From: Alcaligenaceae bacterium SAGV5
GTDB lineage: Bacteria > Pseudomonadota > Gammaproteobacteria > Burkholderiales > Burkholderiaceae_B
Length of the DNA: 64,000 nt
Direction of reading: 5' to 3'
Assembly (NCBI GenBank): GCA_009360345.1
Contig: SPDP01000004.1
Location: 310,001 to 374,000 of the forward strand
Shown here: in pieces, positions 41,312 to 55,681 of the stretch
Layout: each line of letters starts with the position of its first letter
Position numbering within the stretch: the stretch's first letter is position 1
Position numbers and translations under genes: made by a program
The notes under the pieces: generated by a model
Databases searched by the model: none
What the model saw: only the letters and a program-made list of their open reading frames with translations
Told to the model about the DNA's origin: nothing

Positions 41312-41411
41312 TGCCCTGGAGCGGCCCGGCGATAAATGGTACCCCCACGCTTGCCGCCGCGCGGCGCTGCCCCCCGGGGGCCTTTTTGCCTTGGGGCGGC
41401 CCGGCGATAAA
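41312..41411. repeat. Two direct copies of a 25-base GC-rich repeat
   Basis: TGCCCTGGAGCGGCCCGGCGATAAA (41312-41336, shown here in summary as the unit TGCC-TGG-GCGGCCCGGCGATAAA) and a second copy at 41387-41411 differ at two positions. The core GGGGCGGCCCGGCG is shared with repeat copy 2 near 19.8 kb. The interval also has a CCCCCCGGGGGC stem. It appears to be a mosaic of the intergenic repeat family. Confidence 0.6.
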
Positions 41412-41430
41412 AAAACCCGCTTGCGCGGGT
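41409..41430 (-). terminator. Rho-independent terminator of the MarR gene
   Basis: On the minus strand: ACCCGC, loop GCAA, GCGGGT, then a run of seven Ts. The stem is at 41415-41420 and 41425-41430. It lies 29 bases past the MarR stop and would end the TpsB-lipoprotein-MarR transcript. Confidence 0.85.
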
Positions 41431-41458: not shown

Positions 41459-42058
41459 TCAGCCTCGTCGTTTGTCGTCCGCGGCGTGGCGGCGTCCTTC
41501 CAGATGGGGGCCGTTACCGCCTTCTCCCAGCATGCCCAGGGCTTCGGTTTTCAGCGCATGCACGCATTGCGCGAGAAAACCGTGGACCGCGGACAATTGC
41601 TCGCGTTCGTAGCGGGCGCCGATGTGCGCGACATCTTCGGCCACGGCGCGCATATGGCGTTCGATTTCCGCGCACTTTTCGCGCACCGGCCGGATGACGA
41701 CGATGCGCCGGTCCAACGGATGTTTGTCGCGGATCACGAAGCCGGTGGCCTCCAGTCTGTCGATCACCGCAGTCGTTCCGCCAGAGCTGATGCCGGCCAG
41801 GCAGGCCAACTGGCCGGTCGTGATGGGCTCGAACTCGATGACGAGTTCGAGCGCCTTCACGTCGACCATGCCCAGCCCGAGTCGTTCGGCCAATGCTGTC
41901 TGGTATAGCGAGGTGTAGACCGTCAGGCGGCGGCCGAGCATCGTGACGATGCCGTTGAGCATCTCCTGGCTGTCGCTGTCCGTCTCTTCGGGTTCCCGGG
42001 GTATCGATCCGTGGACCGAATGGCTCGAGGAACTCATTACGTTCTCCCAGTGAAGCAT
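41459..42058 (-). CDS. MarR-family transcriptional regulator
   Basis: A 199-residue winged-helix regulator. The core is MLNGIVTMLGRRLTVYTSLY, GMVDVKALELVIEFEPITTG, QLACLAGISSGGTTAVIDRL and EATGFVIRDKHPLDRRIVVI, a clear MarR HTH plus wing (about residues 60-135). N- and C-terminal tails are longer than usual. The ATG at 42058 has AAAGGAG 5 bases upstream, overlapping the end of the lipoprotein gene (11-base gap), so it should be cotranscribed with it. Autoregulation of the secretion unit is a reasonable inference; the ligand is unknown. Confidence 0.88.
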   Translation of the reverse strand: MLHWENVMSSSSHSVHGSIPREPEETDSDSQEMLNGIVTMLGRRLTVYTSLYQTALAERLGLGMVDVKALELVIEFEPITTGQLACLAGISSGGTTAVIDRLEATGFVIRDKHPLDRRIVVIRPVREKCAEIERHMRAVAEDVAHIGARYEREQLSAVHGFLAQCVHALKTEALGMLGEGGNGPHLEGRRHAADDKRRG

Positions 42059-42069
42059 GGCCTCTCCTT

Positions 42070-44445
42070 TCAATGCTTGCCCAAGCCGCCAAGCAACCCG
42101 CCCAGCAGCCCGGTAACCGGGTTCAGCAGGCCGCCGTTGCCTTCGCCACCTCCCGTACCGCCGCCCAGGCCGGTACCCTGTCCGACGCCGGCGGTCAGGC
42201 TGTTGACGGCGCCGGTCAGGTTGGTCAGGACGTTGCCGACGGGATTGGTGTTCTCAGGCGTGGCATGCACCAGGCCACCCACGCTCGAGACGGTCTGGCC
42301 CAGGCCATTCACCAGGCCGCCGAGGCCCGTGCCGACCCCGGGCACGCTGCCGCCCAGGCCGGTACCGACGCCACTCAGGCTGCCGCCCAGCGAGGTCAGG
42401 AGACCGTTGACCGGTTCGCCCAGGCCCGTGGCCGCGCCCACCGTCTGGGTCGTGCCCGATACCAGGTTCGCCACCGGGGTGACGACCGGGTCGAGCGCCG
42501 TGCCGACGTTGCCCAGTGTCGTCTGGGCGTTGAGCGGCACGAGGTTGTCGACCGCGCTGCCGGTGTTGGCCAGGGAAGGATGGAGAATGGGTTTGGTGTC
42601 GCTGCCGATGCCGCCCAGGAGACCGCTGGTGATCGGAGCGAGGAGCCCGTTGCTGCCGCCCAGCAGGCCTTCGAGGTTGCCGGACAGGATGGGCTGCAGC
42701 AGGCCGCCGCCTTCGCCGCCCGTGCCGCCGGTCAGGCCGCCGAGCAGGCCGGTGACGGGAGCCAGGATGCCGCCTTCGCCGCCGGTGGCGCCGTTCAGCA
42801 GGTTGGTGACGGGAGCCAGGAGACCGCCTTCGCCGCCGGTCACGCCGCCGAGCAGGCCGGTGACGGGAGCCAGGATGCCACCTTCGCCGCCGGTGGCGCC
42901 GTTCAGCAGGTTGGTGACGGGAGCCAGGAGACCGCCTTCGCCGCCGGTCACGCCGCCGAGCAGGCCGGTGACGGGGGCCAGGATGCCACCTTCGCCGCCG
43001 GTGGCGCCGTTCAGCAGGTTGGTGACGGGAGCCAGGAGACCGCCCTCGCCGCCGGTCACGCCGCCGAGCAGGCCGGTGACGGGAGCCAGGATGCCGCCTT
43101 CGCCGCCGGTAGCGCCGTTCAACAGATTGGTGACCGGCGCGAGCACGCCGCCATCACCGCCCGTGACGCCGCCAAGCAGGCCGGTGACGGGGGATAGCAG
43201 TCCGCCGCTGGCGGCCGACGGGGCCGCGGTCGCGCCTGCCTTGTCGACCAGTCCGCCTTCCACGCTCAGCCCCAGGCCGGCGGTCAGGCTGTCTACCGAG
43301 CCAGTCAGGTTGCTCAGCACGTTGCCGACCGGGTTCTTGTTGGCGTCGGAAGCGTGCAGCAGGCCGCCGGCGCTGGCGACCGTCGCCCCGAGTCCGGATA
43401 CCAGTCCGCTCACGCCGGTGCCGGCGACGGGAAGGTTGCCGCCCAGGCTCGTACCCAGGTTGGAAACGGCGCCGCCTACCGAGACCAGGAGGTCGTTCAC
43501 CGGTGCGCCGAGTCCGGTCTTGTCGCCCACCTGCTGGGTGAGCTGCGTGGCCGTCCCGACGATGGGGCTGACCGCCGGATCCAGGCCCGCGCCGACCTGG
43601 CCCAGCGTCTGGCCGAGCTTGAGGTCCACGAGATTGTCGACGGCATTGCCGGTGTTGGTCAGTGCCGGCTGCAGAACCGGGTTCTGGACGGTGCCGCCTT
43701 CACCCAGGCCGTTGAGCAGTTGCGCAACGGGGCTGAGCAGGCCGTCGTCGGAGGCCAGCGTGCCGGTCAGGGTGGAGACCGTGCCGGTCAGGTTGTTCAG
43801 CACATTGCCCAGCGGATTGGGATTGCTCTCGGATGCGTTCAGCAGGCCGCCTGCGCTGGCGACCGTATCGCCCAGGCCCGCGACCACGCCGCCCAGGCCC
43901 AGCTTGATGGGCAGGCCGGTGTCGTCCAGCGATTGACCCAGGTCCTTCACCGTGCCACCGACCGAGGTCAGCAGGTTGTCGACGGGAGCACCCAGGCCGG
44001 TGGCGGCGCCCACTTGCTGCGTGAGGCCCGTGACCGTGTTGCCCACCGGCGCGACCACGCCGTCGAGCTTGGTGCCGACGTTGTGCAGCGTACCGGCCAG
44101 TCCGGTATCCACGAGGTTGTCGACGGCTTGGCCGGTGTTGCCCAGCGCGGGTGCCAGCACGCCGGTGACAGGAGTGCCGCCCGGGTTGCCGGGATTGCCC
44201 GGGTCGCCAGGATTCCCGGGATTGCCAGGGTTACCGGGGTTGCCAGGATTTCCGGGATTGCCAGGGTTGCCAGGGTTGTTGGGGTCGCCCGGATTATTGG
44301 GATTGTTGGGGTTGGTGGGGTCTGAGCCTCCTCCCAATCCGGAAGTGATCGCACCGGATCCGGAGCAACCGGCCAATGTCGAGAGTGCGAGCACCAACGC
44401 GGCGACCAGGACACGAGGGCCCGGCTTCGTTTGTTCTTTATGCAT
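42070..44445 (-). CDS. Repetitive collagen-like surface lipoprotein
   Basis: A 791-residue protein rich in Gly, Leu, Val, Thr and Asn. Residues 1-26 are a lipoprotein signal ending LSTLAGC (Cys27). Residues 43-90 are (Gly-Asn-Pro)n triplets of collagen-like Gly-X-Y type. Three homologous modules of about 130 residues follow (about 98-230, 257-395 and 625-755), each with NTG-AVDNLV, TLG-VGT-LDPVV, QQVG--TGLGAPV-(N/D)-LL and a GGLL-A-(S/P)-N-NP-GNVL-NLTG end. Between modules 2 and 3 lie nine 18-residue repeats, alternating [18 protein letters not shown] and [18 protein letters not shown] (414-578). No TPS secretion domain is visible. ATG at 44445 follows AAGGGGA by 6 bases. It lies downstream of a TpsB transporter and may be its passenger (inference). 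Confidence 0.82.
42712..43206 (-). repeat. Coding tandem repeats, nine 54-base units (108-base higher-order period)
   Basis: Two alternating 54-base units encode the GLLGGV and NLLNGA versions of the 18-residue repeat. The DNA of successive 108-base pairs is almost identical, including synonymous positions, which indicates recent expansion or gene conversion. Confidence 0.9.
44176..44319 (-). repeat. Coding Gly-Asn-Pro tandem repeats (9-base unit)
   Basis: The plus strand shows repeated CCAGGGTTG/CCGGGATTG-type 9-mers, encoding about a dozen Gly-Asn-Pro triplets with occasional Asp or Asn-Asn variants, directly after the lipoprotein N-terminus. Copy number is likely variable by slippage. Confidence 0.85.
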
Positions 44446-44672
44446 GATTGTTCCCCTTATCGCTGAAGCGGCGACACTGCCTGCTGCGCCTATTGAGCAA
44501 AAGCTGTGCCAATGTGCGGCGAGCGGTGCGCAGGAGAGCAGGAGGGGCACCCGGCAACACCCGGAAAACCTTGCAAACAGGGGATAAATCGAAAACTCAG
44601 GGAATTCGTGCGGCTGAGACGATGCGCTGAAATACCCTGGGATGCAGGGCGAAAAGACGGGGGAAGAGGGGT

Positions 44673-44710
44673 TTCGTTACGTAGCAGGGAACCCCCTGTT
44701 ACGTAACGAA
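44673..44710. other. 17-base inverted repeat between TpsB and lipoprotein genes
   Basis: TTCGTTACGTAGCAGGG (44673-44689) and CCCTGTTACGTAACGAA (44694-44710) pair at 16 of 17 positions around the loop AACC. It begins 13 bases after the TpsB stop on the minus strand. No T-run follows, so it is not a standard terminator; it may attenuate, protect the 3' end, or bind a protein. Confidence 0.7.
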
Positions 44711-44723
44711 GACCGCGTGCGGA

Positions 44724-46418
44724 TCAGTCGAACCGCAGCGAGTAGTTGGCGTTCAGGCGCAGCGGCCGGCTGCTGCTGTTGACCGGCTTGTCGCCGACGG
44801 GCTTGGCCAGGTTCACGTCGAATGCGTAGTGGCGCTGGTCGGTGACGCGCAGGCCCAGGGCCAGCGACGTGAGCGTGTCCGTCGCCAGTGTGAAGTTCTT
44901 GTTGTTCAGGCTGACGTGCGCGTAATCGGCCAGCACGTAGGGCGTCACGCTTTGCAGATAGGGCAGGCCAACCGTGAAGCGCCGGTTCACCTCGATCGAG
45001 GCGCCGTAGCCCTTGTCTCCGCCCAGTTCGCCGGCGGGATAGCCGCGACCGAAGCGCTGTCCGCCGAACGTGGCCTGTTCGGAGGTGGGCAAGGAGTCGG
45101 AGCTGTACTGGCCCAGCGCCGCCAGCGACAGGCCGAACTGGTAGGGCAGCGCCACGTTCTGGCTGGCCGCCAGCGTATAGCGAGTGAAGCCGAGGTCGTA
45201 GCTGCTGTTCGCGCTCTGTTCCGCGCCCAGTCCGTCCACGCCCTTGTAGATCGCCGCGGTGATGCGCCGCGATTGCTTGTCGGTGGCCTGGACATAGGCC
45301 AGCTCGCCGCGCAGTACCCGCAGGTGGTTGCTGAGCGTGACCTGGTTGCCTGTGATCCGGCTGCTGTAGGTGTCGTTATTGCGCGAGGCATAGAAGCCCG
45401 CCGTGCCCATCAGCGATTCCCGGTTGGCCAGCAGGAAGGGATAGCTCACACTGAGCCCGGCCCGCTGGTTGCGGACCCGGCGGTCGATGTTCTGAGCGTT
45501 CAGGCTGTCGTTCTCGGGATTGGCGGCATAGCTGTAGGCTTCCGCGCGCACGGTCATGCCGTCGCTGCCTACGGGCACGGACACATTGGCGGCGTAGTAC
45601 TCCAGATGATCGCTGCCGCGCGGCACCGCCGTCGTGACCTGGATCTGTTCGGCCAGCGGCGTCAGGCTGTTGGCCGTCGCGGTCAGCATGGCATGGACGC
45701 CGGTGCCGAGGTTGCCGATGCCGGCATCCAGGCGGAAGGCCTTGTGCTCCATGTTCACGACCAGTTCCGTGGAGCCGTCGGCGCGTTTGGGCAGCGAGAG
45801 TTCGGGCTTGATCGTGGCGCCGGCCACCGTGGTCATCAGGTTCAGGTAGCGCTCCAGCGTGGCCCGGGTCAGGGGCCGCTCGGCCTCGATGCGCGCGGCA
45901 TAGTCGCGGATCTTGGCGGCGGCATTGCCGGCATCGCCTTCGATGCGGGTGCTGCCCACATAACCCTCGACCACCGTCACCTTGACCAATCCGTCGCGGA
46001 AATCCTGCGACTGGATCAACGCGAACGACAGCGCGTAGCCGGCGTCGCGATAGAGCTGGGTAATGGCATCGGTGCGCTGGATCAGCTCGGCGACGGTGAT
46101 CTCCTGGCCCGCCAGCGGTTCCAGCAACTCGACCACTTTCTGGAAATCGAGCGCGGTAACGCCCGAGACGTCGAACTGTTTCGGCACCAGGCGATGCGCC
46201 AGCAAAGCCTGGATCGCTTCATTCTGCGCGGGTACCGGTATGGACACCGACGGGGCCGGCGGCGGCGCCGGCACGGATACCGGCGGCAACGACTCCGCAG
46301 GGTTTCCCCGCAGTGGACTATCGGCCGCCTGCGCCGCTAATGCAGAGGTGGCTCCTGCGACGAGCAGGGCCAGACGAAGAGCGCGGAATTCGGGTTTTCC
46401 CGATGAAAACGAGGTCAT
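44724..46418 (-). CDS. TpsB-type outer-membrane transporter (ShlB/FhaC/HecB family)
   Basis: A 564-residue outer-membrane beta-barrel of two-partner secretion. A signal peptide covers about 1-32. A proline-rich linker (residues about 44-63, PPVSVPAPPPAPSVSIPVPA) leads to POTRA domains: FDVSGVTALDFQKVVELLEP and VTVVEGYVGSTRIEGD. The 16-strand-type barrel follows and has the conserved loop motif FGRGYPAGEL near residue 457, the VRGY-type L6 tip that plugs the pore, and ends in Phe-Asp. The usual neighbour is a large TpsA with a filamentous haemagglutinin-type domain; here the same-strand neighbour, 278 bases downstream, is the repetitive lipoprotein. An AT-rich intergenic region lies upstream. 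Confidence 0.9.
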   Translation of the reverse strand: MTSFSSGKPEFRALRLALLVAGATSALAAQAADSPLRGNPAESLPPVSVPAPPPAPSVSIPVPAQNEAIQALLAHRLVPKQFDVSGVTALDFQKVVELLEPLAGQEITVAELIQRTDAITQLYRDAGYALSFALIQSQDFRDGLVKVTVVEGYVGSTRIEGDAGNAAAKIRDYAARIEAERPLTRATLERYLNLMTTVAGATIKPELSLPKRADGSTELVVNMEHKAFRLDAGIGNLGTGVHAMLTATANSLTPLAEQIQVTTAVPRGSDHLEYYAANVSVPVGSDGMTVRAEAYSYAANPENDSLNAQNIDRRVRNQRAGLSVSYPFLLANRESLMGTAGFYASRNNDTYSSRITGNQVTLSNHLRVLRGELAYVQATDKQSRRITAAIYKGVDGLGAEQSANSSYDLGFTRYTLAASQNVALPYQFGLSLAALGQYSSDSLPTSEQATFGGQRFGRGYPAGELGGDKGYGASIEVNRRFTVGLPYLQSVTPYVLADYAHVSLNNKNFTLATDTLTSLALGLRVTDQRHYAFDVNLAKPVGDKPVNSSSRPLRLNANYSLRFD

Positions 46419-46783: not shown

Positions 46784-47581
46784 ATGCAGCCTGGAGATAT
46801 TCTCCCTCTGAGGTTTGACGCCAGCTTGGTCGCGCTGTCCTTTGTGATTTCGGCATTGGGCGCGTATGTGGCGTTACTGGCTGCCAGTCGTATTCGAACG
46901 CTGGATGGCGGCGTGCACGTGGGATACGCCATCGTTGCCGGTGTCGCGCTCGGCGGCGTGGGTATATGGAGCATGCATTTCATCGGCATGCTCGCCCAGA
47001 TCATTCCGTTGGGGGTGGCGTACGGGCTCTGGCTCAATCTGCTCAGTCTGCTGGTGGCGGTGTTATTCGCCGGCGCCGCGCTCTGGTACGTGGGCAGCGC
47101 CCGATTTTCCCTGGACCGCTGCCTGACGGCGGGCGTGCTGGCGGGATTCGGCGTGGCCGGCATGCACTACATCGGCATGAGCTCCATGCGCATGGATGCC
47201 TTCTTCGACTGGAATATCGGCCTGGTGCTGCTTTCCGTCGCGATCGCCATGGCCGCCGCCACCGCGGCCATCTGGCTGGCGTTCAACCTGACCAACGAAC
47301 TGCAGCGCGTCTGTGCCGCCCTGGTCATGGCGTTGGCCGTCTGCGGCATGCATTACACGGGCGTCGCCGCCGGCATCATCATCTGTTCGACCCCCAGGAC
47401 TTTCACCGGCTGGCAGCTGGACGGCAGCGTGCTGCCCTACGCCGTATTCCTGATTTCCATCGTGACTCTGGTCGTCATGCGCATCGAACTGCACCGCAGT
47501 TCCGAGGAAGTGCGGGCCAACGCCGCCAGCCGGGTCGACCACGTCATTTATTCACGCCAGCGGCCGGAAAATCGCAAATAA
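46784..47581 (+). CDS. Stand-alone MHYT-domain membrane sensor
   Basis: A 265-residue inner-membrane protein with about seven hydrophobic spans and three MHYT-type motifs: WSMHFIGM, GMHYIGMSSMRMD and GMHYTGVAAG. The MHYT domain is thought to bind a metal (probably copper) near the outer face and sense a diatomic gas such as O2, CO or NO. It usually precedes GGDEF/EAL, kinase or CRP-type domains. Here only a short hydrophilic tail (about 240-265) follows the last span, so no output domain is present in the same protein. Its position 137 bases before flp, same strand, suggests a role in pilus control; this is inference. Confidence 0.88.
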   Translation: MQPGDILPLRFDASLVALSFVISALGAYVALLAASRIRTLDGGVHVGYAIVAGVALGGVGIWSMHFIGMLAQIIPLGVAYGLWLNLLSLLVAVLFAGAALWYVGSARFSLDRCLTAGVLAGFGVAGMHYIGMSSMRMDAFFDWNIGLVLLSVAIAMAAATAAIWLAFNLTNELQRVCAALVMALAVCGMHYTGVAAGIIICSTPRTFTGWQLDGSVLPYAVFLISIVTLVVMRIELHRSSEEVRANAASRVDHVIYSRQRPENRK

Positions 47582-47622: not shown

Positions 47623-47717
47623 GAGGTGTCATCGAAAATATAGGAATGCAGTCGTGGGTAAATCGGCTGATAATGCCGAGGTAAATGTTTCCTTTTTTTT
47701 CAGAGATGGAGATTAGA

Positions 47718-47897
47718 ATGAATCAAGTGATGAAATTCCTGAAGGAAGACGATGGCGCCACCGCTATCGAGTATGGCTTGATCGCGGGCCTGATCGCCGT
47801 GGTGATCATTGGCGTGCTTACCCTGCTCGGTACCGGGCTCAGGGATATGTTTCAGAAAGTGGTCGACAAGCTGCCGACCACGCCTACGACCCCTTGA
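47718..47897 (+). CDS. flp: Flp-type major pilin (type IVb)
   Basis: A 59-residue prepilin. The leader (MNQVMKFLKEDDG) is cut before Ala in G|ATAIEYGLIAGLIAVVII. Glu5 and Tyr6 after the cleavage site are the Flp signature, followed by a single hydrophobic helix and a short threonine/proline-rich tail (KLPTTPTTP). Assembled Flp subunits form bundled pili for surface adherence and biofilm. ATG at 47718 follows GGAG by 6 bases. It is first in the locus, as in most tad operons. Confidence 0.96.
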   Translation: MNQVMKFLKEDDGATAIEYGLIAGLIAVVIIGVLTLLGTGLRDMFQKVVDKLPTTPTTP

Positions 47898-47954
47898 TGG
47901 TGGCGGGTTGAAAGCTCACCCCGGGTCTATATGGCCCGGGGGAGCGGAAAATAT

Positions 47955-48500
47955 ATGGTTAATAGCAGCCAGGCTCTCGCGTTTCTCGTTTTCTGTACCT
48001 TGGTCATAGGCAGCGACCTGCTCTTTCGCCGTGTTTTCAATTGGCTGATTCTGGCGGGATTGTTGCTCAAGCTGGGTTGGCTGGTCCTGGGCGGAACGGC
48101 GCAGGAAGGATTTACCAGCCAGTGGACGAGTGCCGGCATGGGGGTGCTGCTGGCGTTGCTCTTCCTCGTGCCGCTCTACGTATTCAGGGCGATGGGGGCG
48201 GGGGATGTGAAGTTTTTCGCGGTATTGGGTTTCTGGCTGGAGCCGACGCCTTTGCTCGTTGCCTGGCTGTTGGGCAGTGGAATGGCCGGTCTCCATGCCG
48301 TGGTTTCGATGGTTCACCGGAACCATCCGTTGGGCACCTGGGCGGCGCTGCAATTGGCGGGCGTGCAGGAAAGGATCAACAGTCCCGGCGTGGTGCAGCG
48401 GATGGCGTCCTGGGTGGCCGGGGTCCGGGCGGGCCGTGTCGGGATTCCCTATGCGGCCTATCTCGCCCTGGGGGCGATCTGGGCCTTGTATTCGACATAG
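47955..48500 (+). CDS. tadV: Prepilin peptidase TadV/CpaA
   Basis: A 181-residue inner-membrane aspartyl protease that removes leaders of Flp and the TadE/F pseudopilins. About five hydrophobic segments; the catalytic Asp pair is probably the Asp in VIGSDLLFRRVFNWLI and that in MGAGDVKFFAVLG (the GxGD motif). ATG at 47955 is chosen because GGAG lies upstream and the protein begins at its first span; an earlier ATG at 47931 lacks a ribosome-binding site. It lacks the N-terminal methylase domain of PilD, as expected for TadV. Confidence 0.92.
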   Translation: MVNSSQALAFLVFCTLVIGSDLLFRRVFNWLILAGLLLKLGWLVLGGTAQEGFTSQWTSAGMGVLLALLFLVPLYVFRAMGAGDVKFFAVLGFWLEPTPLLVAWLLGSGMAGLHAVVSMVHRNHPLGTWAALQLAGVQERINSPGVVQRMASWVAGVRAGRVGIPYAAYLALGAIWALYST

Positions 48501-49151
48501 ATGGCGGAATTCGAGGAAATGGTGAAAAGCGCTGACATACGCACCGTGGCGAAGGATCGATGGCATGGCGCCACTTCGCAGCAAGGCGCCTATGCGACCG
48601 AGTTCGCCCTGATCTTCCCCATTTTTTTCCTGGTTTTCTATGGCGTGTTGAGCTTCGGCCTGATCTTCACGACCCAGCAATCGCTGACGCTGGCGGTCGA
48701 GGAAGGAGCTCGTGCGAGCCTGAGGTACTACCTTCCTTCCGCGGCGGGTTCCGGCTTCATGGCACAGATGCAGGGGCGTCTCGCACATGGCTGCGAAGTG
48801 GCGAAACTGCGCGCGGCCTGGTTGGGAGAGGTCGGAGGCGGAACCATCACGCCGACCTGCACCGCTTCGATCAAGGGGCCGTGCGTCAAGGCGGACGGCA
48901 CCATGGATACGGCGTCGTCATGCACGACGACGCTGGGCGCGGCGTCCGCCGGCTCGTCGGTGGCCTGCGGCTATCGGCAGGAAGAGATGTGCTTTGCGAC
49001 GCTGAACGTGAGCTACGCCTACAGCGCGAATCCGCTCGTGCCGTCGCTGCCCGGCACGTTTCTCGTCATTCCCGATGTGTTGAGCGCCACGGCCAGGGTG
49101 GCGCTGGATCCGGGCGCGCTGCAACTGGGTTCGTCCGGGGGGGGAGCATGA
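48501..49151 (+). CDS. tadE: TadE-like pseudopilin (first)
   Basis: A 216-residue minor pilin-like protein. After a hydrophilic leader, QQG|AYATEFALIFPIFFLVF shows a TadV-type cleavage site with Glu at position 5, then one hydrophobic helix. The C-terminal exported domain contains four Cys (HGCEVAK, TPTCTAS, KGPCVKA, SSCTTT) plus two more further on. Its start directly follows the tadV stop and its end overlaps the next gene by 4 bases. Confidence 0.88.
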   Translation: MAEFEEMVKSADIRTVAKDRWHGATSQQGAYATEFALIFPIFFLVFYGVLSFGLIFTTQQSLTLAVEEGARASLRYYLPSAAGSGFMAQMQGRLAHGCEVAKLRAAWLGEVGGGTITPTCTASIKGPCVKADGTMDTASSCTTTLGAASAGSSVACGYRQEEMCFATLNVSYAYSANPLVPSLPGTFLVIPDVLSATARVALDPGALQLGSSGGGA

Positions 49152-49678
49152 GCGCTGCCCTGTTCGAGGCCGTCCGCATGGGCCGAGCGCAGCGCGGTGT
49201 CGCGGCGCTCGAGTTCTCGCTGGTCTGCGTGCTGTTTCTCGTCATCCTGTTCGGGATCATCAGCTACGGCTGCATCTTCGTCGCCCAGCAATCGCTGTCG
49301 CGAGCGGCGGAGGAAGGCGCGCGCGTGGCCTTGCAGTCGACCCTGGCGGGATTGAAGGAGGGCGCATCGCTGCAGGCCGAGGCATGCGGGGCGGTGGCGC
49401 AGTCGGTCGACTGGCTGACCCGGCGCCGCGCGTCGATGGGGCAGGCGCCCGTGGCCTGCGAGCTCAGGGCGTCCCAGGCGTGTACCTATGCCGCGGGCCT
49501 GCGCTGCGCCTCGCTGGTCGTGACCTATATCGATTACCGGAAGTATCCGCTGATACCGGAACTGTTGCCGCTGGGCAATTGGCTGCAGTCCTTGTTCGGC
49601 GAAAACACGGCCTGGATCCCGCGGGACCTGTCGGCCGTGGCGACTGTGCAATTGGGACGGAATACGTCGGGCTCGTGA
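49148..49678 (+). CDS. TadE/TadF-like pseudopilin (second)
   Basis: A 176-residue protein overlapping the previous gene by 4 bases (ATGA). ALEFSLVCVLFLVILFGIIS follows QRG|VA, again placing Glu at position 5 after a predicted TadV site, then EEGARVALQSTLAG, a TadE-family landmark. The C-terminal domain has paired Cys (EACGAVA, ACELRAS, QACTYAAGLRC). It could be the TadF of this locus; TadE and TadF are hard to tell apart by eye. Confidence 0.85.
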   Translation: MSAALFEAVRMGRAQRGVAALEFSLVCVLFLVILFGIISYGCIFVAQQSLSRAAEEGARVALQSTLAGLKEGASLQAEACGAVAQSVDWLTRRRASMGQAPVACELRASQACTYAAGLRCASLVVTYIDYRKYPLIPELLPLGNWLQSLFGENTAWIPRDLSAVATVQLGRNTSGS

Positions 49679-49726
49679 CAGGACCCGGCGCGTGAAGATT
49701 TTTTCGAGTATCGAGGCGACAAGCTG

Positions 49727-50689
49727 ATGAACAACGTAACCAAGATCGTCGCGGCCATGCTGGTGTTGCTGGCGGTGCTGCTGGGGGGCTATGCCTTCGT
49801 GCTGGCGACCAAGCCCGCTCCGGTCGCCAAGCCGGCGGCCGCACCTGCGCCATTGTCCGAGAACCGGATCCCGGTGGTCGTGGCGGACAAACTGCTTCCC
49901 GGCGGGGTGCCCATCGATACGGGCGCGCTCAAGGTCGTGGAGCTGCCCATCGATCCGGCCGGTGCCTATCGGGCAACCAGCGATCTCGCGGGCAAGATCC
50001 CCAAGTTCGATATCGGTCCCGGCACGCCGGTCACCGAAAGCATTCTGGTCAAGGGGCTCACGCTGCTGCTGAACGATGGCGAGCGGGCCGTGGCGGTGCC
50101 GGTCGACGAGGTCGTCGGCACGGGCAACCGCGTTTCGCCGGGGGATTTCGTGGACGTGTTCTTTACGCTCAGGCAAGGCCAGGACGTGACCAGGACGCAG
50201 GCGAGGTTGCTGTTGTCGCGTCTGCGCGTGCTGACATACGGCAGTGCGTCGGCCGCCGGCGATGCGCCGTCGGACGATGGGGCGACGGTGGTGCGGAGCA
50301 ATAATCCGCCCCCGCCGGCCCGTACCGCGGTGCTGGCCGTGCCGACCGCCGACGTCAACCGCCTGTTGCTGGCCACGCAGAACGGCAAGCTGCAATTGGT
50401 GCTGCGCAATCCCACGGACGCGACCGCGCCCGATGCCAGCCTGTTCCCGGAACCGCCGCCAGTGCTGGCGGGCAAGAACGGATTGACCAAGGAGCAGCGC
50501 GAAGCGCTCGAACAGGCCGACAACCAGGCCTATGCCGGCCTGGAGTTGACCGGATTGTCGGGCGGCGCGGCCAAGCGGCCCGCGCCGGTGGTGCAGGCCC
50601 GTCCGCGGCAGCCCGCCGCCGCGCCCAAGGTCGAGGGCAATACGGTGGAAGTGGTGCGCGGCACCAAGCGTGAAGTCGTCGGGTTTTAA
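49727..50689 (+). CDS. rcpC: Pilus assembly protein RcpC/CpaB
   Basis: A 320-residue periplasmic protein anchored by an N-terminal span (IVAAMLVLLAVLLGGYAFVL). A SAF-like domain follows (IPVVVADKLLPGGVPIDTGA, KVVELPIDPAGAY), then the RcpC/CpaB core GDFVDVFFTLRQGQD. CpaB works with the secretin at the outer membrane. The C-terminal part (about 240-320) is Ala/Pro-rich and ends NTVEVVRGTKREVVGF, a pattern often seen in CpaB proteins. It lies 15 bases before the secretin gene. Confidence 0.92.
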   Translation: MNNVTKIVAAMLVLLAVLLGGYAFVLATKPAPVAKPAAAPAPLSENRIPVVVADKLLPGGVPIDTGALKVVELPIDPAGAYRATSDLAGKIPKFDIGPGTPVTESILVKGLTLLLNDGERAVAVPVDEVVGTGNRVSPGDFVDVFFTLRQGQDVTRTQARLLLSRLRVLTYGSASAAGDAPSDDGATVVRSNNPPPPARTAVLAVPTADVNRLLLATQNGKLQLVLRNPTDATAPDASLFPEPPPVLAGKNGLTKEQREALEQADNQAYAGLELTGLSGGAAKRPAPVVQARPRQPAAAPKVEGNTVEVVRGTKREVVGF

Positions 50690-50703
50690 CGGGTAGAACC
50701 TCA

Positions 50704-52023
50704 ATGAAAATCAGCAATCAGGCTTTCGTGCGGCGTCTGGCACCCCTGGCCATGGCATTGACGCTGTCCTTCGCCGTGCCGGCCGGCGCGGCCGACGAAG
50801 GCGGTCCGCGCCAGATATCGGTGGCGGTGCGCGATCAATACCAGCTCAGCATTCCGGGCAACCTGGAGCGTGTGTCGGTAGTCGATCCCGATGTGGCCGA
50901 CGTCGTGATCCAGAAGGGCAGCGGCAACCGCAAGGGCGGGGTGCTGGTGGTGGGCAAGAAGCCGGGCACCACCATGGTATCCGTCTGGCCGCGGGGCGCC
51001 GCGGCACCCCAGGCCTACCTGGTCCGCGTGACGGGCGACCTGGCCACCTTGCTGGGCGAGGGGGACGGCGCGAAGGCCCAGGTCTATGGGGAGGCAGCCG
51101 TGCTGAGCGGGCAGTCGCCATCGTTGCTCTCGCATCACCGCGCCGTCTCGGCGGCCAGCGACGCGGTGGGGGCGGAAAACGTATTCGACGCCTCCACCAT
51201 CGAAACCGGTGGCGTGGTCCAGGTGGAAGTGAAAGTCGTGGAGTTCAGCAAGCAGGTGCTGAAAGAGGCCGGCTTCAATTTTTCCGCCTCCGACCGGCGC
51301 GGCAGTTTCAGCTTCGGCCTGGCCAGCGATCTGGCGCCGACCGGCAAGGCGTTCGACCTGACCATGGGGCTGAATCGCGGCAACTTCCTGCTCAATACCA
51401 ATCTGCGCCTTCTGGAAACCAACGGCCTGGCGCGGGTGCTGGCCGAGCCTACGCTGGTCGCGCTGTCCGGCCAGAGCGCCAAGTTCCTGGCGGGGGGCGA
51501 GCTGCCGGTGCCGCAGGCCGGTGGCCTGGGTACCACCACGGTCATGTACAAGCCGTTCGGCATCGGACTGACGCTGACGCCCACGGTGCTGGCCAAGGAC
51601 AGGATCGCGCTCAAGGTCGCTCCCGAGGCCAGCGACCTGGACTGGACCAACGGCATCACCCTCAACAATATCCAGATTCCGGCCATCATCACCCGCCGGG
51701 CCGATACCACGGTCGAACTCGGCGACGGCGAAAGCTTCGTCATCGGCGGACTGGTGTCGCGCTCGACCACCTCGAATCTGGACAAGCTGCCGTTCCTGGG
51801 CGATCTGCCCATCATCGGCTCCTTCTTCCGGAACATGAAATATTCCCAAAAGGAAAAGGAACTGCTGATCGTCGTGACGCCGCATCTGGTCAAGCCCTTG
51901 GCCAAGGGCGTCAAACCGCCCATGCCCGGGGCGAACGAGAAGCGTGACTCCGCGACCAACGCCTGGGGGCATTTCCTGCTGGGCATTGCGAGCAATGATG
52001 AACTGCCGGGCTTTTCCAAGTAG
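50704..52023 (+). CDS. rcpA: Type II/IVb secretin RcpA/CpaC
   Basis: Outer-membrane secretin through which the Flp pilus exits. The 439-residue protein has a signal peptide (about 1-29, ending AVPAGAAD). An N-terminal domain with YQLSIPGNLERVSVVDPDVA and KPGTTMVSVWP is of the CpaC BON-like type. The secretin core begins near VQVEVKVVEFSKQVLKEAG and ends VELGDGESFVIGGLVS, LPFLGDLPIIGSFFRN and KELLIVVTPHLVKP, the classic C-terminal signature. No separate RcpB pilotin-like gene is visible next to it. Confidence 0.94.
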   Translation: MKISNQAFVRRLAPLAMALTLSFAVPAGAADEGGPRQISVAVRDQYQLSIPGNLERVSVVDPDVADVVIQKGSGNRKGGVLVVGKKPGTTMVSVWPRGAAAPQAYLVRVTGDLATLLGEGDGAKAQVYGEAAVLSGQSPSLLSHHRAVSAASDAVGAENVFDASTIETGGVVQVEVKVVEFSKQVLKEAGFNFSASDRRGSFSFGLASDLAPTGKAFDLTMGLNRGNFLLNTNLRLLETNGLARVLAEPTLVALSGQSAKFLAGGELPVPQAGGLGTTTVMYKPFGIGLTLTPTVLAKDRIALKVAPEASDLDWTNGITLNNIQIPAIITRRADTTVELGDGESFVIGGLVSRSTTSNLDKLPFLGDLPIIGSFFRNMKYSQKEKELLIVVTPHLVKPLAKGVKPPMPGANEKRDSATNAWGHFLLGIASNDELPGFSK

Positions 52024-52056
52024 CCGGTTGGTGCCAAGTATTTGTAGGAGTCGTAT

Positions 52057-53340
52057 ATGAACGCCCCGAGCAAGGAGTTGGCGAGCCTGTTGGATACTCG
52101 TCGTTTCCTGTTCTTCACCGGCGATAGTTCATCGGCGCAGCGGTTGGCCGCGGTGCTGAGGCATGATGGCGTGGTTGTGCAGGAGGATGTGGTGCCGGAC
52201 CGGCTGTCGGCGCGCCTGGCCGAGCTTGGGCCGCAGATGGTGTTGCTGGATTTCGGCGCCGACGACCACGAGCCCGGCAAGCTGCTGCATGCCAGCGACC
52301 TGGCGAAGACGCTGGCACGCGTCGCGCCCGCGTTGCCGGTGGTCGCCGTGGGCAGCATGACGCGGCCGCAGGGGGCCGTGGCCGCCCTGCGGGCCGGCGT
52401 GCGTGATTTCATCGATCCGGCGGACGAAAACGAGGTGCGGGATGTCGTCCGGCGCGTGTTGCAGTCCCATGCGGCAAGCGGTGTGCCGGGGCGCGGCCAG
52501 ATGGTGGTGTTGCTGGGTGTGCGGGCGGGGCTGGGTACGACCACGCTGGCCGCGCACCTGACCACCATGGCGCAATTGCAGGGCGAAGGCGGGCACATCG
52601 CGGAAGGCCAGCCGTCCGGCAGCCTGCGCGGTCCCGCGGCGCTGTTGGATCTGGGCTTGCCCGCGGCCGACGGCCAGCTTTACTTGAACGTGTCCGGCAA
52701 TTTCCATTTCGCCGAGGCGGTACGTAATCTGCGTCGTTTCGACGAGACCCTGGTCAATACCGCGCTCACGCGCAGCGCCAGCGGGGTGGCGGTGATCTCG
52801 CTGCCGCGCGACCTAGCCGAGATGCGCACGGTATCGCATGCGGATTCGCTGGGCCTTCTGGACCGGTTGCGCCAGCATTTTGGCCTGCTGGTGGCCGACG
52901 TGGGCGGATTTTCCAATGCGGATTTCGTCGCCAGCATGGTGCGGGCCGCCGACCAGACATGGATCGTGACCGACCAGTCGGTGGGGGCCTTGGTATCGCT
53001 GGCGGACGTCTTGCGAGACCTGGACGGGCGCGACGTGGATCGGGCCCGGATGCGGCTGGTGGTGAATCGCTATGACGAGCGCTATGGCATGACCGCCGAT
53101 CAGATCGCCCAGCGCTTCGATGTGCAGTTGTTGGGCACGTTGCCCGATCGCGCGTTGGCACTGATGAACAGCACCAACCAGGGCCGGTTGCTGCACGAGG
53201 TGGCGGATCGGGACCCTTATGTCCGGGCGGCGCAGGCGTTGGTGGACTCGCTCGGGGCGTACGACCAGGCCATGCCGCCGGGAGCGAAATGGCTGTCGCG
53301 GTGGCTGCCCAATCTGCACAGGCATCTGGTGACGCGATGA
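52057..53340 (+). CDS. tadZ: Pilus assembly localisation ATPase TadZ/CpaE
   Basis: A 427-residue MinD/ParA-like protein that places the Tad machine, usually at a pole. Residues about 15-135 form a receiver-like domain (FLFFTGDSSSAQRLAAVLRH, MVLLDFGADDHEPGKLL), probably without phosphorylation. The ATPase domain has the deviant Walker A VLLGVRAGLGTTTLAAHL, where the first Lys of MinD-type KGG-GKT is replaced, as is common in CpaE. VADVGGFSNADFVASMVRAA and DQTWIVTDQSVGALVSLAD are the Walker-B-side strands. The gene follows rcpA by 33 bases and precedes tadA by 49. Confidence 0.92.
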   Translation: MNAPSKELASLLDTRRFLFFTGDSSSAQRLAAVLRHDGVVVQEDVVPDRLSARLAELGPQMVLLDFGADDHEPGKLLHASDLAKTLARVAPALPVVAVGSMTRPQGAVAALRAGVRDFIDPADENEVRDVVRRVLQSHAASGVPGRGQMVVLLGVRAGLGTTTLAAHLTTMAQLQGEGGHIAEGQPSGSLRGPAALLDLGLPAADGQLYLNVSGNFHFAEAVRNLRRFDETLVNTALTRSASGVAVISLPRDLAEMRTVSHADSLGLLDRLRQHFGLLVADVGGFSNADFVASMVRAADQTWIVTDQSVGALVSLADVLRDLDGRDVDRARMRLVVNRYDERYGMTADQIAQRFDVQLLGTLPDRALALMNSTNQGRLLHEVADRDPYVRAAQALVDSLGAYDQAMPPGAKWLSRWLPNLHRHLVTR

Positions 53341-53389
53341 AGAAAGACACGGATTTGAAGCGCGCAAACATGCAGCGGAGAGTGTGATC

Positions 53390-54739
53390 ATGACGGCATC
53401 GATCGAGTTTGCCGACGATAGTCCGGCGTTTGCCAACACCCAGCGCTTCCAGGACGTCAAGGCCGCGGCGCACGAACACCTGCTGTCGCGTATCGAAGAA
53501 CTGGGCGCGGAGTTCGGGCGCTGGTCCCGGACCGCGATCCAGCAGTTCGTCGACCTGGAGGTCGACAGTTTCGTGCGCCTGCGGCGGGTTCCCATCAACG
53601 AAGCCGAACTCCGGCAGGTCGCGGCCTCGCTGACGAAGGAACTCGCCGGACTGGGGCCGCTGGAAGACCTGCTGGCCGATGCGGCCGTCGAGGATATCCT
53701 GATCAACGGCCACGACAATGTGTTCGTGTCGCGACGCGGGGTGTTGCAAAGGGAAGTCCTGCGCTTCAGCGACAACCAGCACCTGCTGCGTATCGTGCGC
53801 CGCATCCTCGCGCCGCTGGGCCGGCGGCTGGATGAGTCCAGCCCCATGGTGGACGCGCGCTTGCCGGATGGCGGCCGCCTGAACGTGGTCATCGAGCCGC
53901 TGGCGGTGGACGGGCCCATGGTGTCCATCCGGAAATTCCGCCAGGATCCGCTCAAGCCGGCCGACCTGCTGGCGCTGGGCACCTTCAACGAGGAAATCCA
54001 CCGCCTGCTGAGCCTGGCGGTGCGGGAACGCTGCAACATCCTGGTCTCGGGCGGGACGAGTTCCGGCAAGACCTCGCTGCTCAATGCGCTGGCGTTCTTC
54101 GTTCCCGAGACCGAGCGCGTGGTCACGGTCGAGGATACGGCGGAACTGTCGCTGAACCACCCCCATGTGGTCAGGCTGGAATCCCGCCAGGGCGGCTTCG
54201 ATGGCGCGGGCCACATCAGCATCCGCGATCTGATACGCAACAGCCTCCGGATGCGGCCGGACCGCGTGGTCGTCGGCGAAGTCCGGGGGCCCGAGGTCAT
54301 GGACATGCTGCAGGCCATGAATACCGGCCACGAAGGGTCGATGGCGACCATACACGCGAACTCCCCGCGCGAATGCCTGTACCGGATGGAGATGCTGGCG
54401 GGGTTCGCTGGCTTCCAGGGCAGCGAGGACAGCCTGCGCCGACAGATCGCCAGCGCGCTGGACTTCATCGTGCAGATCGCCCGCCTGTCCAACGGCCGCC
54501 GGCGCATCGTGTCGATCTCGGAAGTCACCGGCATGGGTGACAACGTGATCTCGACGCAGGAACTCTATCGCCACGAGAGTTTCGTCGGCCCCGATGGCGA
54601 AGAGAAAGACCGCTGGGTGTCGCTTGGCATCCATCCGCACACGCCCAAGCTGGCCAAGTACCGTGACCAACTGCGCGTGACGATGGCCCCGGAGCCGCCC
54701 CAGGGCGGCGGGGGCGGTTTCTGGTCCAGGGGGCGATGA
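53390..54739 (+). CDS. tadA: Pilus assembly ATPase TadA/CpaF
   Basis: Cytoplasmic hexameric motor for Flp secretion and retraction. The 449-residue protein has the N-terminal all-alpha domain (about 1-110), VEDILINGHDNVFVSRRGVL, Walker A ILVSGGTSSGKTSLLNAL (about 217-233), the Asp box VVTVEDTAELSLNHPHVVRL, Walker B MRPDRVVVGEVRGPEVMDML and the His box HEGSMATIHANSPRECLYRM. ATG at 53390 is chosen (GGAGAG 7 bases upstream) over GTG at 53384. Its stop overlaps the tadB start by 4 bases. Confidence 0.96.
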   Translation: MTASIEFADDSPAFANTQRFQDVKAAAHEHLLSRIEELGAEFGRWSRTAIQQFVDLEVDSFVRLRRVPINEAELRQVAASLTKELAGLGPLEDLLADAAVEDILINGHDNVFVSRRGVLQREVLRFSDNQHLLRIVRRILAPLGRRLDESSPMVDARLPDGGRLNVVIEPLAVDGPMVSIRKFRQDPLKPADLLALGTFNEEIHRLLSLAVRERCNILVSGGTSSGKTSLLNALAFFVPETERVVTVEDTAELSLNHPHVVRLESRQGGFDGAGHISIRDLIRNSLRMRPDRVVVGEVRGPEVMDMLQAMNTGHEGSMATIHANSPRECLYRMEMLAGFAGFQGSEDSLRRQIASALDFIVQIARLSNGRRRIVSISEVTGMGDNVISTQELYRHESFVGPDGEEKDRWVSLGIHPHTPKLAKYRDQLRVTMAPEPPQGGGGGFWSRGR

Positions 54740-55677
54740 TGTCGGCCCTGCTTCTTTCGGTCTTGTGCATCGCGCTGCTGCTGGTGGCGGCGGGACTGTG
54801 GCTGTGGCAGAGCGCGAGCGAGCGGGGACGCCGGCAGGCGACCAGCGCCTTCGTCGAGGAACAGCTCAGCCGGTCCTTCGACCCCACCCGCGCGGTGGTG
54901 GCCGCGGCCCAGCAGCTCTACCCGCCCGTGCGCCCTCGGGGCGTGCGCGGGCGATTCCAGAACATGCTGCTTCGTGCCGGCGTCGAGCCCGGCCCCGCTT
55001 TCTACGGCCCCTGGCTCGCGGCGCTGGTGGCCATGCCTGTATTGGCCCTGCTGTTCAGCGGTGGTCTGGCTGCGATGGTGATGCTCGTCCTGGTGGTGCT
55101 GGCGGTCCTGTTCCAGCTCTGGTGGCGGGCGGACAAGCGCCGGCAGAAAATGGTGCGGCAGTTGCCGGGTTTCATCGATGCCCTGGTGCGGCTCATCACC
55201 ATCGGCAACAGCCTGGGATCGGCTTTCCAGACCGCGGTTTCCTCGGTCGATGCGCCCTTGTTCGAGGTGCTCGAGCGGGCCAATCAATTGAACCGGGCGG
55301 GCATGGAACTGGATGCTTCACTGGTGCATGCCGCCAGGCTCTATCGTTCCTATGAACTGGAACTGGTCGCCGCCGTGATCGGCGTGGCACTGCGTTTCGG
55401 TGGCCGCAGCGATGTGGTGCTGGAACGCATGGCGTCTTTCATGCGCGACTTGCAGCAAGCGCGAGAGGAGTTGCACGCGCTCTCCGCCGAAGTCCGGTTG
55501 TCGGCCTGGATCCTGGGGCTGCTGCCGATTTTCGTCGCCGGGTTCATCGTCATCTTCAACAACGCCATGTTCGTGGGCATGTGGACCGACCCGGTTGGCC
55601 AGAAGATGCTGATGGGCGCTTTCGCTCTGCAACTGGTCGGCTCTTTCTGGCTGTACCGCATGGCCAAATCGGTTTGA
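54736..55677 (+). CDS. tadB: Pilus assembly platform protein TadB
   Basis: A 313-residue inner-membrane protein with a T2SSF-type domain (about 145-270) containing RQLPGFIDALVRLITIGNSLG, FQTAVSSV and VIGVALRFGGRSDVVLERMAS. Hydrophobic spans lie at the N-terminus, at about 90-130 in two segments, and at the end. With TadC it forms the inner-membrane platform that TadA drives. ATGATG at 54736 gives two possible starts; the first overlaps the tadA stop. Confidence 0.94.
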   Translation: MMSALLLSVLCIALLLVAAGLWLWQSASERGRRQATSAFVEEQLSRSFDPTRAVVAAAQQLYPPVRPRGVRGRFQNMLLRAGVEPGPAFYGPWLAALVAMPVLALLFSGGLAAMVMLVLVVLAVLFQLWWRADKRRQKMVRQLPGFIDALVRLITIGNSLGSAFQTAVSSVDAPLFEVLERANQLNRAGMELDASLVHAARLYRSYELELVAAVIGVALRFGGRSDVVLERMASFMRDLQQAREELHALSAEVRLSAWILGLLPIFVAGFIVIFNNAMFVGMWTDPVGQKMLMGAFALQLVGSFWLYRMAKSV

Positions 55678-55681
55678 AGCT

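What the first reader, a model, noticed from the sequence alone, without database searches (positions are those of the whole stretch)
41459..46418. Candidate unusual secretion unit: TpsB transporter, collagen-like repeat lipoprotein, MarR regulator
Three same-strand genes end at one strong terminator (41409-41430): a TpsB-type outer-membrane transporter, a 791-residue repetitive lipoprotein with no TPS domain, and a MarR regulator starting 11 bases after the lipoprotein. Classical two-partner systems pair TpsB with a filamentous TpsA. A lipidated, collagen-like, modular passenger would be a different substrate class. The gene order is seen directly; the partnership is inference.
Basis: partly seen in the sequence, partly recalled or inferred. 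Interest (0 to 1): 0.7.

Follow-up and report, generated by a model that had tools for sequence, protein, structure and literature searches.

The report
Dedicated exporter for sticky surface lipoproteins
A bacterial outer-membrane transporter of a type known for exporting one class of large proteins is here kept together with a different kind of partner, a fat-anchored repeat protein, which suggests an undescribed way of putting sticky proteins on the cell surface.

Summary
In detail: TpsB (44724-46418), a 791-residue lipoprotein (42070-44445) and MarR (41459-42058), minus strand. The passenger carries Pfam Collagen_mid (PF15984) and no TPS domain. The suggested partnership is strongly supported. 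In 200 genomes of one Burkholderiales family, Collagen_mid and this TpsB occur together in 108, one alone in 2, neither in 90. In 74 of the 75 genomes with both positions listed they are adjacent; in Pandoraea they are unlinked. Two genomes of other orders also carry the adjacent pair. Lipoprotein-linked TpsBs form one clade (100/100) apart from TPS-type TpsBs. The one Pandoraea genome (of 15) lacking the lipoproteins has a TpsB interrupted by a stop, though two other genomes have stops and keep the domain. New here: in Burkholderiales the module usually sits beside a Tad/Flp pilus locus. The passengers are published as 'Bcc-CLPs' (BCAL1523/1524, beside flp); their neighbour BCAL1522, probably this TpsB, is labelled heme utilization-related, and ten library searches listed no paper naming it their exporter. 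Export is not shown. Most likely: a non-canonical two-partner system displaying lipidated adhesins.

The parts
44724..46418 (-). TpsB-type outer-membrane transporter (POTRA_2 + ShlB; two POTRA-like folds and 16 strands in a weak model)
42070..44445 (-). Passenger: lipoprotein with three Collagen_mid modules, no TPS domain
44365..44445 (-). Lipoprotein signal peptide with lipobox LAGC, Cys27
   Evidence: invariant in 6 Pigmentiphaga-type sequences
44178..44295 (-). Gly-X-Y (GNP/GDP) repeat stretch
42724..43191 (-). 108-bp tandem array, 4.3 copies, 94% matches; length differs between Pigmentiphaga-type loci
42070..42165 (-). C-terminal hydrophobic [15 protein letters not shown] tail ending in basic residues; candidate sorting signal (inference)
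41459..42058 (-). MarR-family regulator, 11 bp after the lipoprotein
41415..41430 (-). Terminator-like stem-loop plus T tract
44670..44714 (-). Conserved inverted repeat/hairpin with two GTTACGTAAC-type palindromes upstream of the lipoprotein; operator or RNA element (inference)
46784..47581 (+). Divergent membrane protein with MHYT-type repeats (name recalled), between the module and the Tad locus
47685..47897 (+). Flp-type pilin, 70 aa (name recalled)
47931..56650 (+). Tad locus: CpaA, TadE, RcpC, RcpA, TadZ, TadA, TadB, TadC (names recalled except RcpC)
   Evidence: RcpC PF16976 at window 50054-50407

Best explanation
The TpsB is the dedicated outer-membrane exporter of the repeat lipoprotein(s) encoded with it: a non-canonical two-partner system whose passenger is lipidated and has no TPS domain. 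Proposed working: the lipoprotein is made with a lipobox, lipidated at Cys27 and sent to the outer membrane; a segment other than a classical TPS domain (Collagen_mid, or the conserved C-terminal LLGG tail) is held by the TpsB POTRA domains; the chain passes out through the barrel, probably C-terminus or hairpin first because the N-terminus is fixed by its lipid; the modules then stand on the cell surface as an adhesin or aggregation factor alongside the Tad/Flp pilus encoded next door. MarR, where present, probably controls lipoprotein expression through the palindromic element upstream. Shown: domains, conserved pairing, dedicated TpsB clade, Tad linkage. Inferred: transport, direction, signal, adhesion, regulation.
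For: Co-occurrence: in the order sample Collagen_mid was over cut-off in 5 of 200 genomes and TpsB at E <= 1e-120 in exactly those 5 of the same 200 (sameness of the samples read from handle numbers); in one family 109 of 200 and 109 of 200, overlap 108. Prediction confirmed: 5 of 5 further strong-TpsB genomes had the domain beside TpsB, 0 of 6 TpsB-less genomes of the window's family had it. Adjacency in 74 of 75 genomes with both positions listed, lipoprotein upstream on the same strand; reversed order in Pigmentiphaga, G227 and G257. Other orders: both genomes over cut-off, G765 and G966, have TpsB next to the lipoprotein. One TpsB clade, 100/100. Pandoraea horticolens, the only one of 15 Pandoraea genomes without Collagen_mid, has an in-frame stop in its unlinked TpsB; the other 14 are open. 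Lipobox found in 29 of 31 passenger-like ORFs. The own genome's TPS-domain matches lie on other contigs. Published: BCAL1524 in outer-membrane vesicles and needed for normal autoaggregation (PMC10303873 passages).
Against: No export assay exists. Pandoraea TpsB is unlinked from the lipoproteins. The P. horticolens case is one genome, also appears to have lost the lipoprotein-linked Tad copy, and two other genomes, G574 and G586, have a TpsB match with an internal stop yet keep Collagen_mid matches, so TpsB decay does not track passenger loss strictly. G584 has a Collagen_mid protein without TpsB. Some genomes have extra Collagen_mid genes with no TpsB beside them (L037, L042). Four weaker TpsB relatives (32-35%) lack PF15984: three have another repeat lipoprotein adjacent, the fourth (G166) a lipoprotein-like ORF 2.4 kb away in the opposite orientation. 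Co-occurrence counts are not phylogenetically independent. Structure models are weak (TpsB mean pLDDT 50.6, lipoprotein 40.4).
Confidence: 0.73

Rival explanations
1. TpsB serves the Tad/Flp pilus (for example exporting a pilus-associated factor) and the lipoproteins are Tad accessories; TpsB and lipoprotein co-occur only because both belong to the Tad island.
For: At least three Tad genes lie near the passengers in 28 of 37 passenger-bearing regions; P. horticolens seems to have lost the Tad copy and the lipoproteins together (from scores); in B. cenocepacia BCAL1520, 1523, 1524 and flp genes are induced together (PMC7970998 passages) and several genes of both operons fall in a cepR mutant (PMC2753556 passages).
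Against: TpsB stays with a lipoprotein where Tad is absent or unlinked: G765 has no RcpC match, G966, G025, G072 and G191 have it elsewhere. In Pandoraea the TpsB has no Tad genes near it. 142 of 200 family genomes have RcpC but only 109 have TpsB. RcpA is already the Tad outer-membrane channel (established knowledge).
Confidence: 0.13
2. Ordinary two-partner secretion: this TpsB exports a classical TpsA encoded elsewhere, and the lipoprotein neighbour is incidental.
For: The own genome has 7 TPS-domain matches; Pandoraea shows that this TpsB can lie apart from its presumed partner.
Against: The 7 matches lie on C1, C5, C8 and C14 and four other ShlB matches on C1, C8 and C14, none on C11; no obvious TpsA-sized gene beside the relatives whose ORFs I listed, though their flanking ORFs were not scanned for PF05860; separate clade from TPS-type TpsBs; co-occurrence with Collagen_mid in 108 of 200.
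Confidence: 0.05
3. TpsB and lipoprotein work together without export of the lipoprotein: the lipoprotein stays on the periplasmic side as a scaffold or plug for TpsB, or TpsB is a porin-like channel (the BCAL1522 label 'heme utilization-related').
For: The N-terminal lipid would hold the protein at the membrane; PMC10224339 Table 1 gives BCAL1522 that label.
Against: BCAL1524 was found in outer-membrane vesicles and affects autoaggregation (PMC10303873 passages), which fits surface exposure but does not prove it; long repeat arrays of variable length are typical of surface proteins (recalled).
Confidence: 0.09

Closest known systems
Two-partner secretion (type Vb): FhaC/FHA, CdiB/CdiA
   Same: TpsB with ShlB-type POTRA and ShlB barrel; best PDB fold matches FhaC 4ql0 and CdiB 6wim; transporter and passenger encoded together.
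   Different: Passenger is a lipoprotein without TPS domain, drawn mostly helical in a weak model; TpsBs form a separate clade; one to three passengers beside one TpsB; usually beside a Tad locus in Burkholderiales.
Bcc-CLPs: Collagen_mid lipoproteins of the Burkholderia cepacia complex (BCAL1523, BCAL1524; PMC10224339)
   Same: PF15984, lipobox, repeats, beside the flp operon; BCAL1520-1524 has the order seen in G305 (L115), where TpsB is 1686 bp like BCAL1522.
   Different: Table 1 calls the neighbour BCAL1522 'Putative Exported Heme Utilization-Related Protein', and no exporter is proposed in the parts I read; the window protein has three partial Collagen_mid modules and lies downstream of TpsB, followed by MarR.
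Slam / surface lipoprotein assembly modulators (recalled)
   Same: Also a dedicated outer-membrane barrel for particular surface lipoproteins.
   Different: Different barrel family; only POTRA_2 and ShlB were found here.
BcpAIOB / CDI systems of Burkholderia (PMC3415462 seen in a listing; PMC5422565 passages)
   Same: TpsB-type transporter; a lipoprotein (BcpO) can be part of the locus.
   Different: BcpO is an accessory to a TPS-domain toxin; here the passenger has no TPS domain and the next gene is MarR.

Membership tests
Two-partner secretion (type Vb) | TpsB with POTRA_2 + ShlB domains | tested here: met
   Pfam over curated cut-offs; fold match FhaC/CdiB
Two-partner secretion (type Vb) | Two POTRA domains and a 16-strand barrel | tested here: inconclusive
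   The model shows both by my count of its elements but mean pLDDT is 50.6; Pfam finds one POTRA_2
Two-partner secretion (type Vb) | Passenger with N-terminal TPS domain (PF05860) | tested here: not met
   0 of 19 passengers scanned
Two-partner secretion (type Vb) | Beta-helical filamentous passenger | tested here: inconclusive
   Model mostly helical; 18-residue repeats drawn as regular strands at pLDDT about 50-54
Two-partner secretion (type Vb) | Passenger secretion depends on TpsB | not testable with these tools
   needs deletion and a surface assay
Collagen_mid lipoproteins (Bcc-CLPs) | PF15984 over cut-off | tested here: met
   141.3 bits against cut-off 31.1
Collagen_mid lipoproteins (Bcc-CLPs) | Lipobox signal peptide | tested here: met
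   LAGC, Cys27, invariant in 6 sequences
Collagen triple-helix proteins | Pfam Collagen PF01391 in the window protein | tested here: not met
   not listed at E up to 1; 11 Gly-X-Y triplets only
Slam-type lipoprotein translocon | Slam domains in the transporter | tested here: not met
   only POTRA_2 and ShlB found
Contact-dependent inhibition (CdiBAI/BcpAIOB) | TPS-domain toxin plus immunity gene | tested here: not met
   no TPS domain in the passenger; next gene is MarR

The most novel reading that the evidence does not exclude
A distinct branch of type V secretion: a TpsB clade that has given up TPS-domain substrates and exports N-terminally lipidated repeat adhesins, reading a non-TPS signal (Collagen_mid or the C-terminal LLGG tail) and moving the chain with its N-terminus tethered, so opposite in polarity to FHA-type secretion; one transporter can serve several passengers, even unlinked ones as in Pandoraea.
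Probability: 0.5. Interest if true: 0.8.

Novelty: new variant of a known kind. Interest (0 to 1): 0.66.

Why it matters
TpsB transporters are described as dedicated to a single, characteristically haemagglutinin-like partner (PMC4104836 passage), recognised through its TPS domain (PMC5422565 passages). A TpsB clade tied to lipidated, TPS-less passengers would widen the substrate range of type V secretion and give a concrete, testable answer to how some Gram-negative bacteria bring lipoproteins to the surface. It also offers a likely exporter for the Bcc-CLP adhesins, for which the papers seen name none, and links them with the Tad pilus locus as one surface-attachment island across several Burkholderiales families.

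Tried and rejected
Three-gene operon as the conserved unit: rejected, MarR is found (E <= 1e-8) in 16 of 37 passenger-bearing regions: Pigmentiphaga, G113-type loci of the window's family (G227, G257) and Pandoraea. Tad as the real client of TpsB: kept as a rival but weakened by G765 and G966. Collagen as the defining feature: rejected, longest Gly-X-Y runs range from 0 to 39 triplets over 31 passenger-like ORFs. The Pandoraea neighbourhood at first looked contrary, until the genome-wide search found the lipoproteins elsewhere beside a Tad locus. AF2 of the lipoprotein was too poor for a fold search, so none was run; its solved-structure hits were weak, among them collagen peptides. The C-terminal motif count was chosen after seeing the tails: LLGG-like 28 of 31 tails against 164 of 384 body windows, LxPVT-like 21 of 31 against 113 of 384, a basic residue in the last three positions 25 of 31 against 160 of 4565 body triplets; the proteins are related, so these are not independent. 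Gene calls in fetched loci come from a simple ORF picker (longest or GC3-ranked) that sometimes chose the wrong strand; no gene finder was used. In the class sample two matches below the cut-off (G648, G744) and in the order sample one (G058; opened as L013/L043, not a recognisable member) were not counted.
Full report
Observation. Pfam gives POTRA_2 and ShlB for the first, three stretches of Collagen_mid (PF15984, 4.3e-41) for the second and MarR for the third. No TPS domain is seen in the passenger. The passenger has a lipobox (LAGC, Cys27), a run of 11 Gly-X-Y triplets, and a 108-bp tandem array whose length differs between Pigmentiphaga-type loci. So 'collagen-like' describes a small part of it.

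Whose genome. The nearest relatives of the TpsB (80-94% identity) are four Pigmentiphaga records and one unnamed Burkholderiales MAG; the window is therefore Pigmentiphaga-like (inference). All five loci keep TpsB, lipoprotein and MarR in order. The own genome has four other ShlB matches on contigs C1, C8 and C14 and seven TPS-domain matches on C1, C5, C8 and C14, none on C11.

Is the pairing real? The first sign was mixed: the 15 Pandoraea TpsB relatives (42-44%) had no match to the window lipoprotein within about 8 kb (15 of 15), and the ORFs of the 4 loci listed show none (4 of 15). But 14 of the 15 Pandoraea genomes carry 2-4 Collagen_mid matches elsewhere (one of the four in G205 is below the cut-off). 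In the 8 of these 14 genomes whose region I fetched, the lipoproteins sit with a MarR gene beside a Tad locus. The exception, P. horticolens (L033; identical coordinates show that G524 and G211 are the same genome), has no Collagen_mid, and its TpsB is interrupted by an in-frame stop. The other 14 are open (for L023 one search covered 404 codons and one search shows the open frame). Its only RcpC match scores 9.1e-33, whereas 16 of the 22 genomes of that genus label (g109) have a best match between 6e-25 and 4e-22; I read this as loss of the lipoprotein-linked Tad copy, from scores only. Against a strict rule, two other genomes of the family sample, G574 and G586, have TpsB matches with one internal stop and still have Collagen_mid matches; I did not follow them.

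Independent samples. Across the order, Collagen_mid passed its cut-off in 5 of 200 genomes. TpsB at E <= 1e-60 was found in 14 of 399 genomes, 10 of them at E <= 1e-120; by handle numbering the 399 include the first 200, where 9 have TpsB at E <= 1e-60 and the strong ones are exactly the five Collagen_mid genomes. The five other strong TpsB genomes were then tested: 5 of 5 have Collagen_mid beside TpsB; 0 of 4 weaker ones and 0 of 6 TpsB-less genomes of the window's family do. The rest of the 199 added genomes were not tested for Collagen_mid. In the family of G158, 109 of 200 genomes have Collagen_mid, 109 of 200 have TpsB, 108 both, 90 neither; the two singles are G584 and P. horticolens (Fisher p 2e-55, not corrected for relatedness). 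For the 75 genomes with listed positions of both, 74 have them under 6 kb apart, lipoprotein upstream on the same strand, median gap 776 bp from domain to TpsB match; the remaining one has them on different contigs.

Outside Burkholderiales. In the class sample 5 of 369 genomes matched at E <= 0.001 and 3 were over the cut-off: the window's genome and two from other orders, G765 and G966 (class Gammaproteobacteria in GTDB, recalled). Both have the lipoprotein directly followed by a TpsB of 29-30% identity on the same strand, confirmed by Pfam. Neither has Tad genes in the 19 kb fetched; G765 has no RcpC match, G966 has one about 35 kb off.

The divergent Burkholderiales relatives (32-35%) G072, G025 and G191 have a repeat lipoprotein without Collagen_mid next to TpsB; that of G191 carries a Pfam Collagen domain. 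G166 has a lipoprotein-like ORF 2.4 kb away in the opposite orientation. A maximum-likelihood tree of 38 TpsBs puts the 27 window-like ones, including these and the two from other orders, in one group with 100/100 support, apart from 11 that I labelled TPS-type, three from the own genome and eight from plasmids. Rows were chosen for similarity or linkage, and several outer branches are long. Among plasmid records, identity falls from 39.6% to 28.7% with nothing between in the 40 rows listed of 135. Of the 8 lower-identity plasmid hits opened, 6 lie beside or within two genes of a filamentous-haemagglutinin-type or other very large protein, one has a beta-helix protein as second gene downstream and one has no recognisable partner.

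Passengers. Of 31 passenger-like ORFs gathered, a lipobox was found in 29; G765 may have a weak one that the pattern missed, and one small G121 protein has none. None of 19 scanned has a TPS domain. Their C-termini share a hydrophobic LLGG-type tail ending in basic residues (25 of 31 have K, R or H in the last three positions), a candidate export or sorting signal picked after the fact.

Tad pilus. Of 37 passenger-bearing regions, 28 have at least three Tad genes, 1.0-3.8 kb from the passenger in nearest BLAST hits; 5 of the 28 are Pigmentiphaga-type and 8 Pandoraea, and some queries came from these same regions. The nine without are L021 (contig ends there), L037 and L042 (extra passengers without TpsB), L119-L122, L139 and L140. 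In the window the module is divergent from an Flp-type pilin (47685-47897) and the Tad genes. Named cases are Cupriavidus metallidurans CH34, C. campinensis (TpsB match in two frames) and Caballeronia insecticola. Thus the TpsB-lipoprotein pair looks like the core and Tad linkage a Burkholderiales addition.

Structure. The TpsB model has two POTRA-like folds and 16 strands by my count, but mean pLDDT 50.6; its best PDB fold matches are FhaC 4ql0 (6.5e-16) and CdiB 6wim (2.2e-14), then BamA; by sequence the best solved chain is the TpsB4 POTRA 2mhj (1.9e-11). The lipoprotein model is poor (40.4): helices for Collagen_mid, regular strands every 18 residues in the tandem array.

Regulation. Between TpsB and the lipoprotein lies an inverted repeat holding two GTTACGTAAC-type palindromes, the only two within one mismatch in the window (0.18 expected). 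Its arms are unchanged in six Pigmentiphaga-type loci while the loop varies, and it folds at z -4.7. MarR operator or RNA hairpin: not decided.

Literature. PMC10224339 (passages, sections 10 and 11, part of Table 1) describes PF15984 lipoproteins as Bcc-CLPs and lists bcal1520, 1522 ('Putative Exported Heme Utilization-Related Protein', 1686 bp), 1523 and 1524 beside the flp pilin bcal1525; 'two-partner' and 'shlb' have 0 occurrences in its main text. The same layout and TpsB length are seen in G305. I did not have the BCAL1522 sequence, so its identity with this TpsB rests on position, length and label. PMC7970998 (passages): BCAL1520, 1523, 1524 and flp genes induced on contact with host-membrane vesicles; BCAL1522 is not named in the passages. 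PMC2753556 (passages): two putative operons BCAL1524-1520 and BCAL1525-1537, several genes lower in cepR mutants. PMC10303873 (abstract and passages): BCAL1524 in outer-membrane vesicles by 2D gel; its deletion lowers autoaggregation and virulence in larvae. PMC4565658 (passages): other Burkholderia collagen-like proteins, 0 occurrences of hemolysin or Flp. PMC5422565, PMC4104836, PMC7474880 and PMC12724388 were seen as passages. In ten library searches none of the titles and abstract starts listed joins a TpsB to these lipoproteins; lists were capped, and the library lacks most subscription journals.

Verdict. The pairing of a dedicated TpsB clade with lipidated, TPS-less passengers is well supported; that TpsB exports them is the best explanation but untested.

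Noticed in passing
window 44670-44714: Inverted repeat with two GTTACGTAAC-type palindromes, arms identical in six Pigmentiphaga-type loci, loop variable; possible MarR operator or RNA hairpin.
   Followed up: partly
L033 (Pandoraea horticolens): TpsB interrupted by an in-frame stop in the one Pandoraea genome of 15 that lacks Collagen_mid lipoproteins.
   Followed up: partly
G574 and G586 (rows): TpsB matches with one internal stop in genomes that still have Collagen_mid matches.
   Followed up: no
L150 (Cupriavidus campinensis): TpsB match comes as two pieces in different frames; sequencing error or decay not decided.
   Followed up: no
L121 (G191) 5412-7127: TpsB-linked lipoprotein with a long collagen-type stretch (Pfam Collagen) and no Collagen_mid: passenger swap within the same TpsB clade.
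   Followed up: partly
L118 (G121) 5672-6508: Small protein between lipoprotein and TpsB with a signal peptide but no lipobox found and an LLAPVTGL motif; possible non-lipidated passenger.
   Followed up: no
L139 (G765) 5442-6419: Secreted-looking 325-aa protein directly after TpsB.
   Followed up: no
window 42724-43191: 108-bp tandem array of variable length between relatives; drawn as 18-residue strand repeats in a low-confidence model.
   Followed up: partly
window 46784-47581; L151 13237-15306: A protein with MHYT-type repeats lies near the module in the window, and a relative (39%) near it in Caballeronia insecticola.
   Followed up: no
L039 10799-11272, L115 7361-7876, L117 7465-8007: A small exported protein (DUF2147-like, recalled) is encoded after TpsB, at the position of bcal1520; L041 and L149 have another small exported protein there. 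Role unknown.
   Followed up: no
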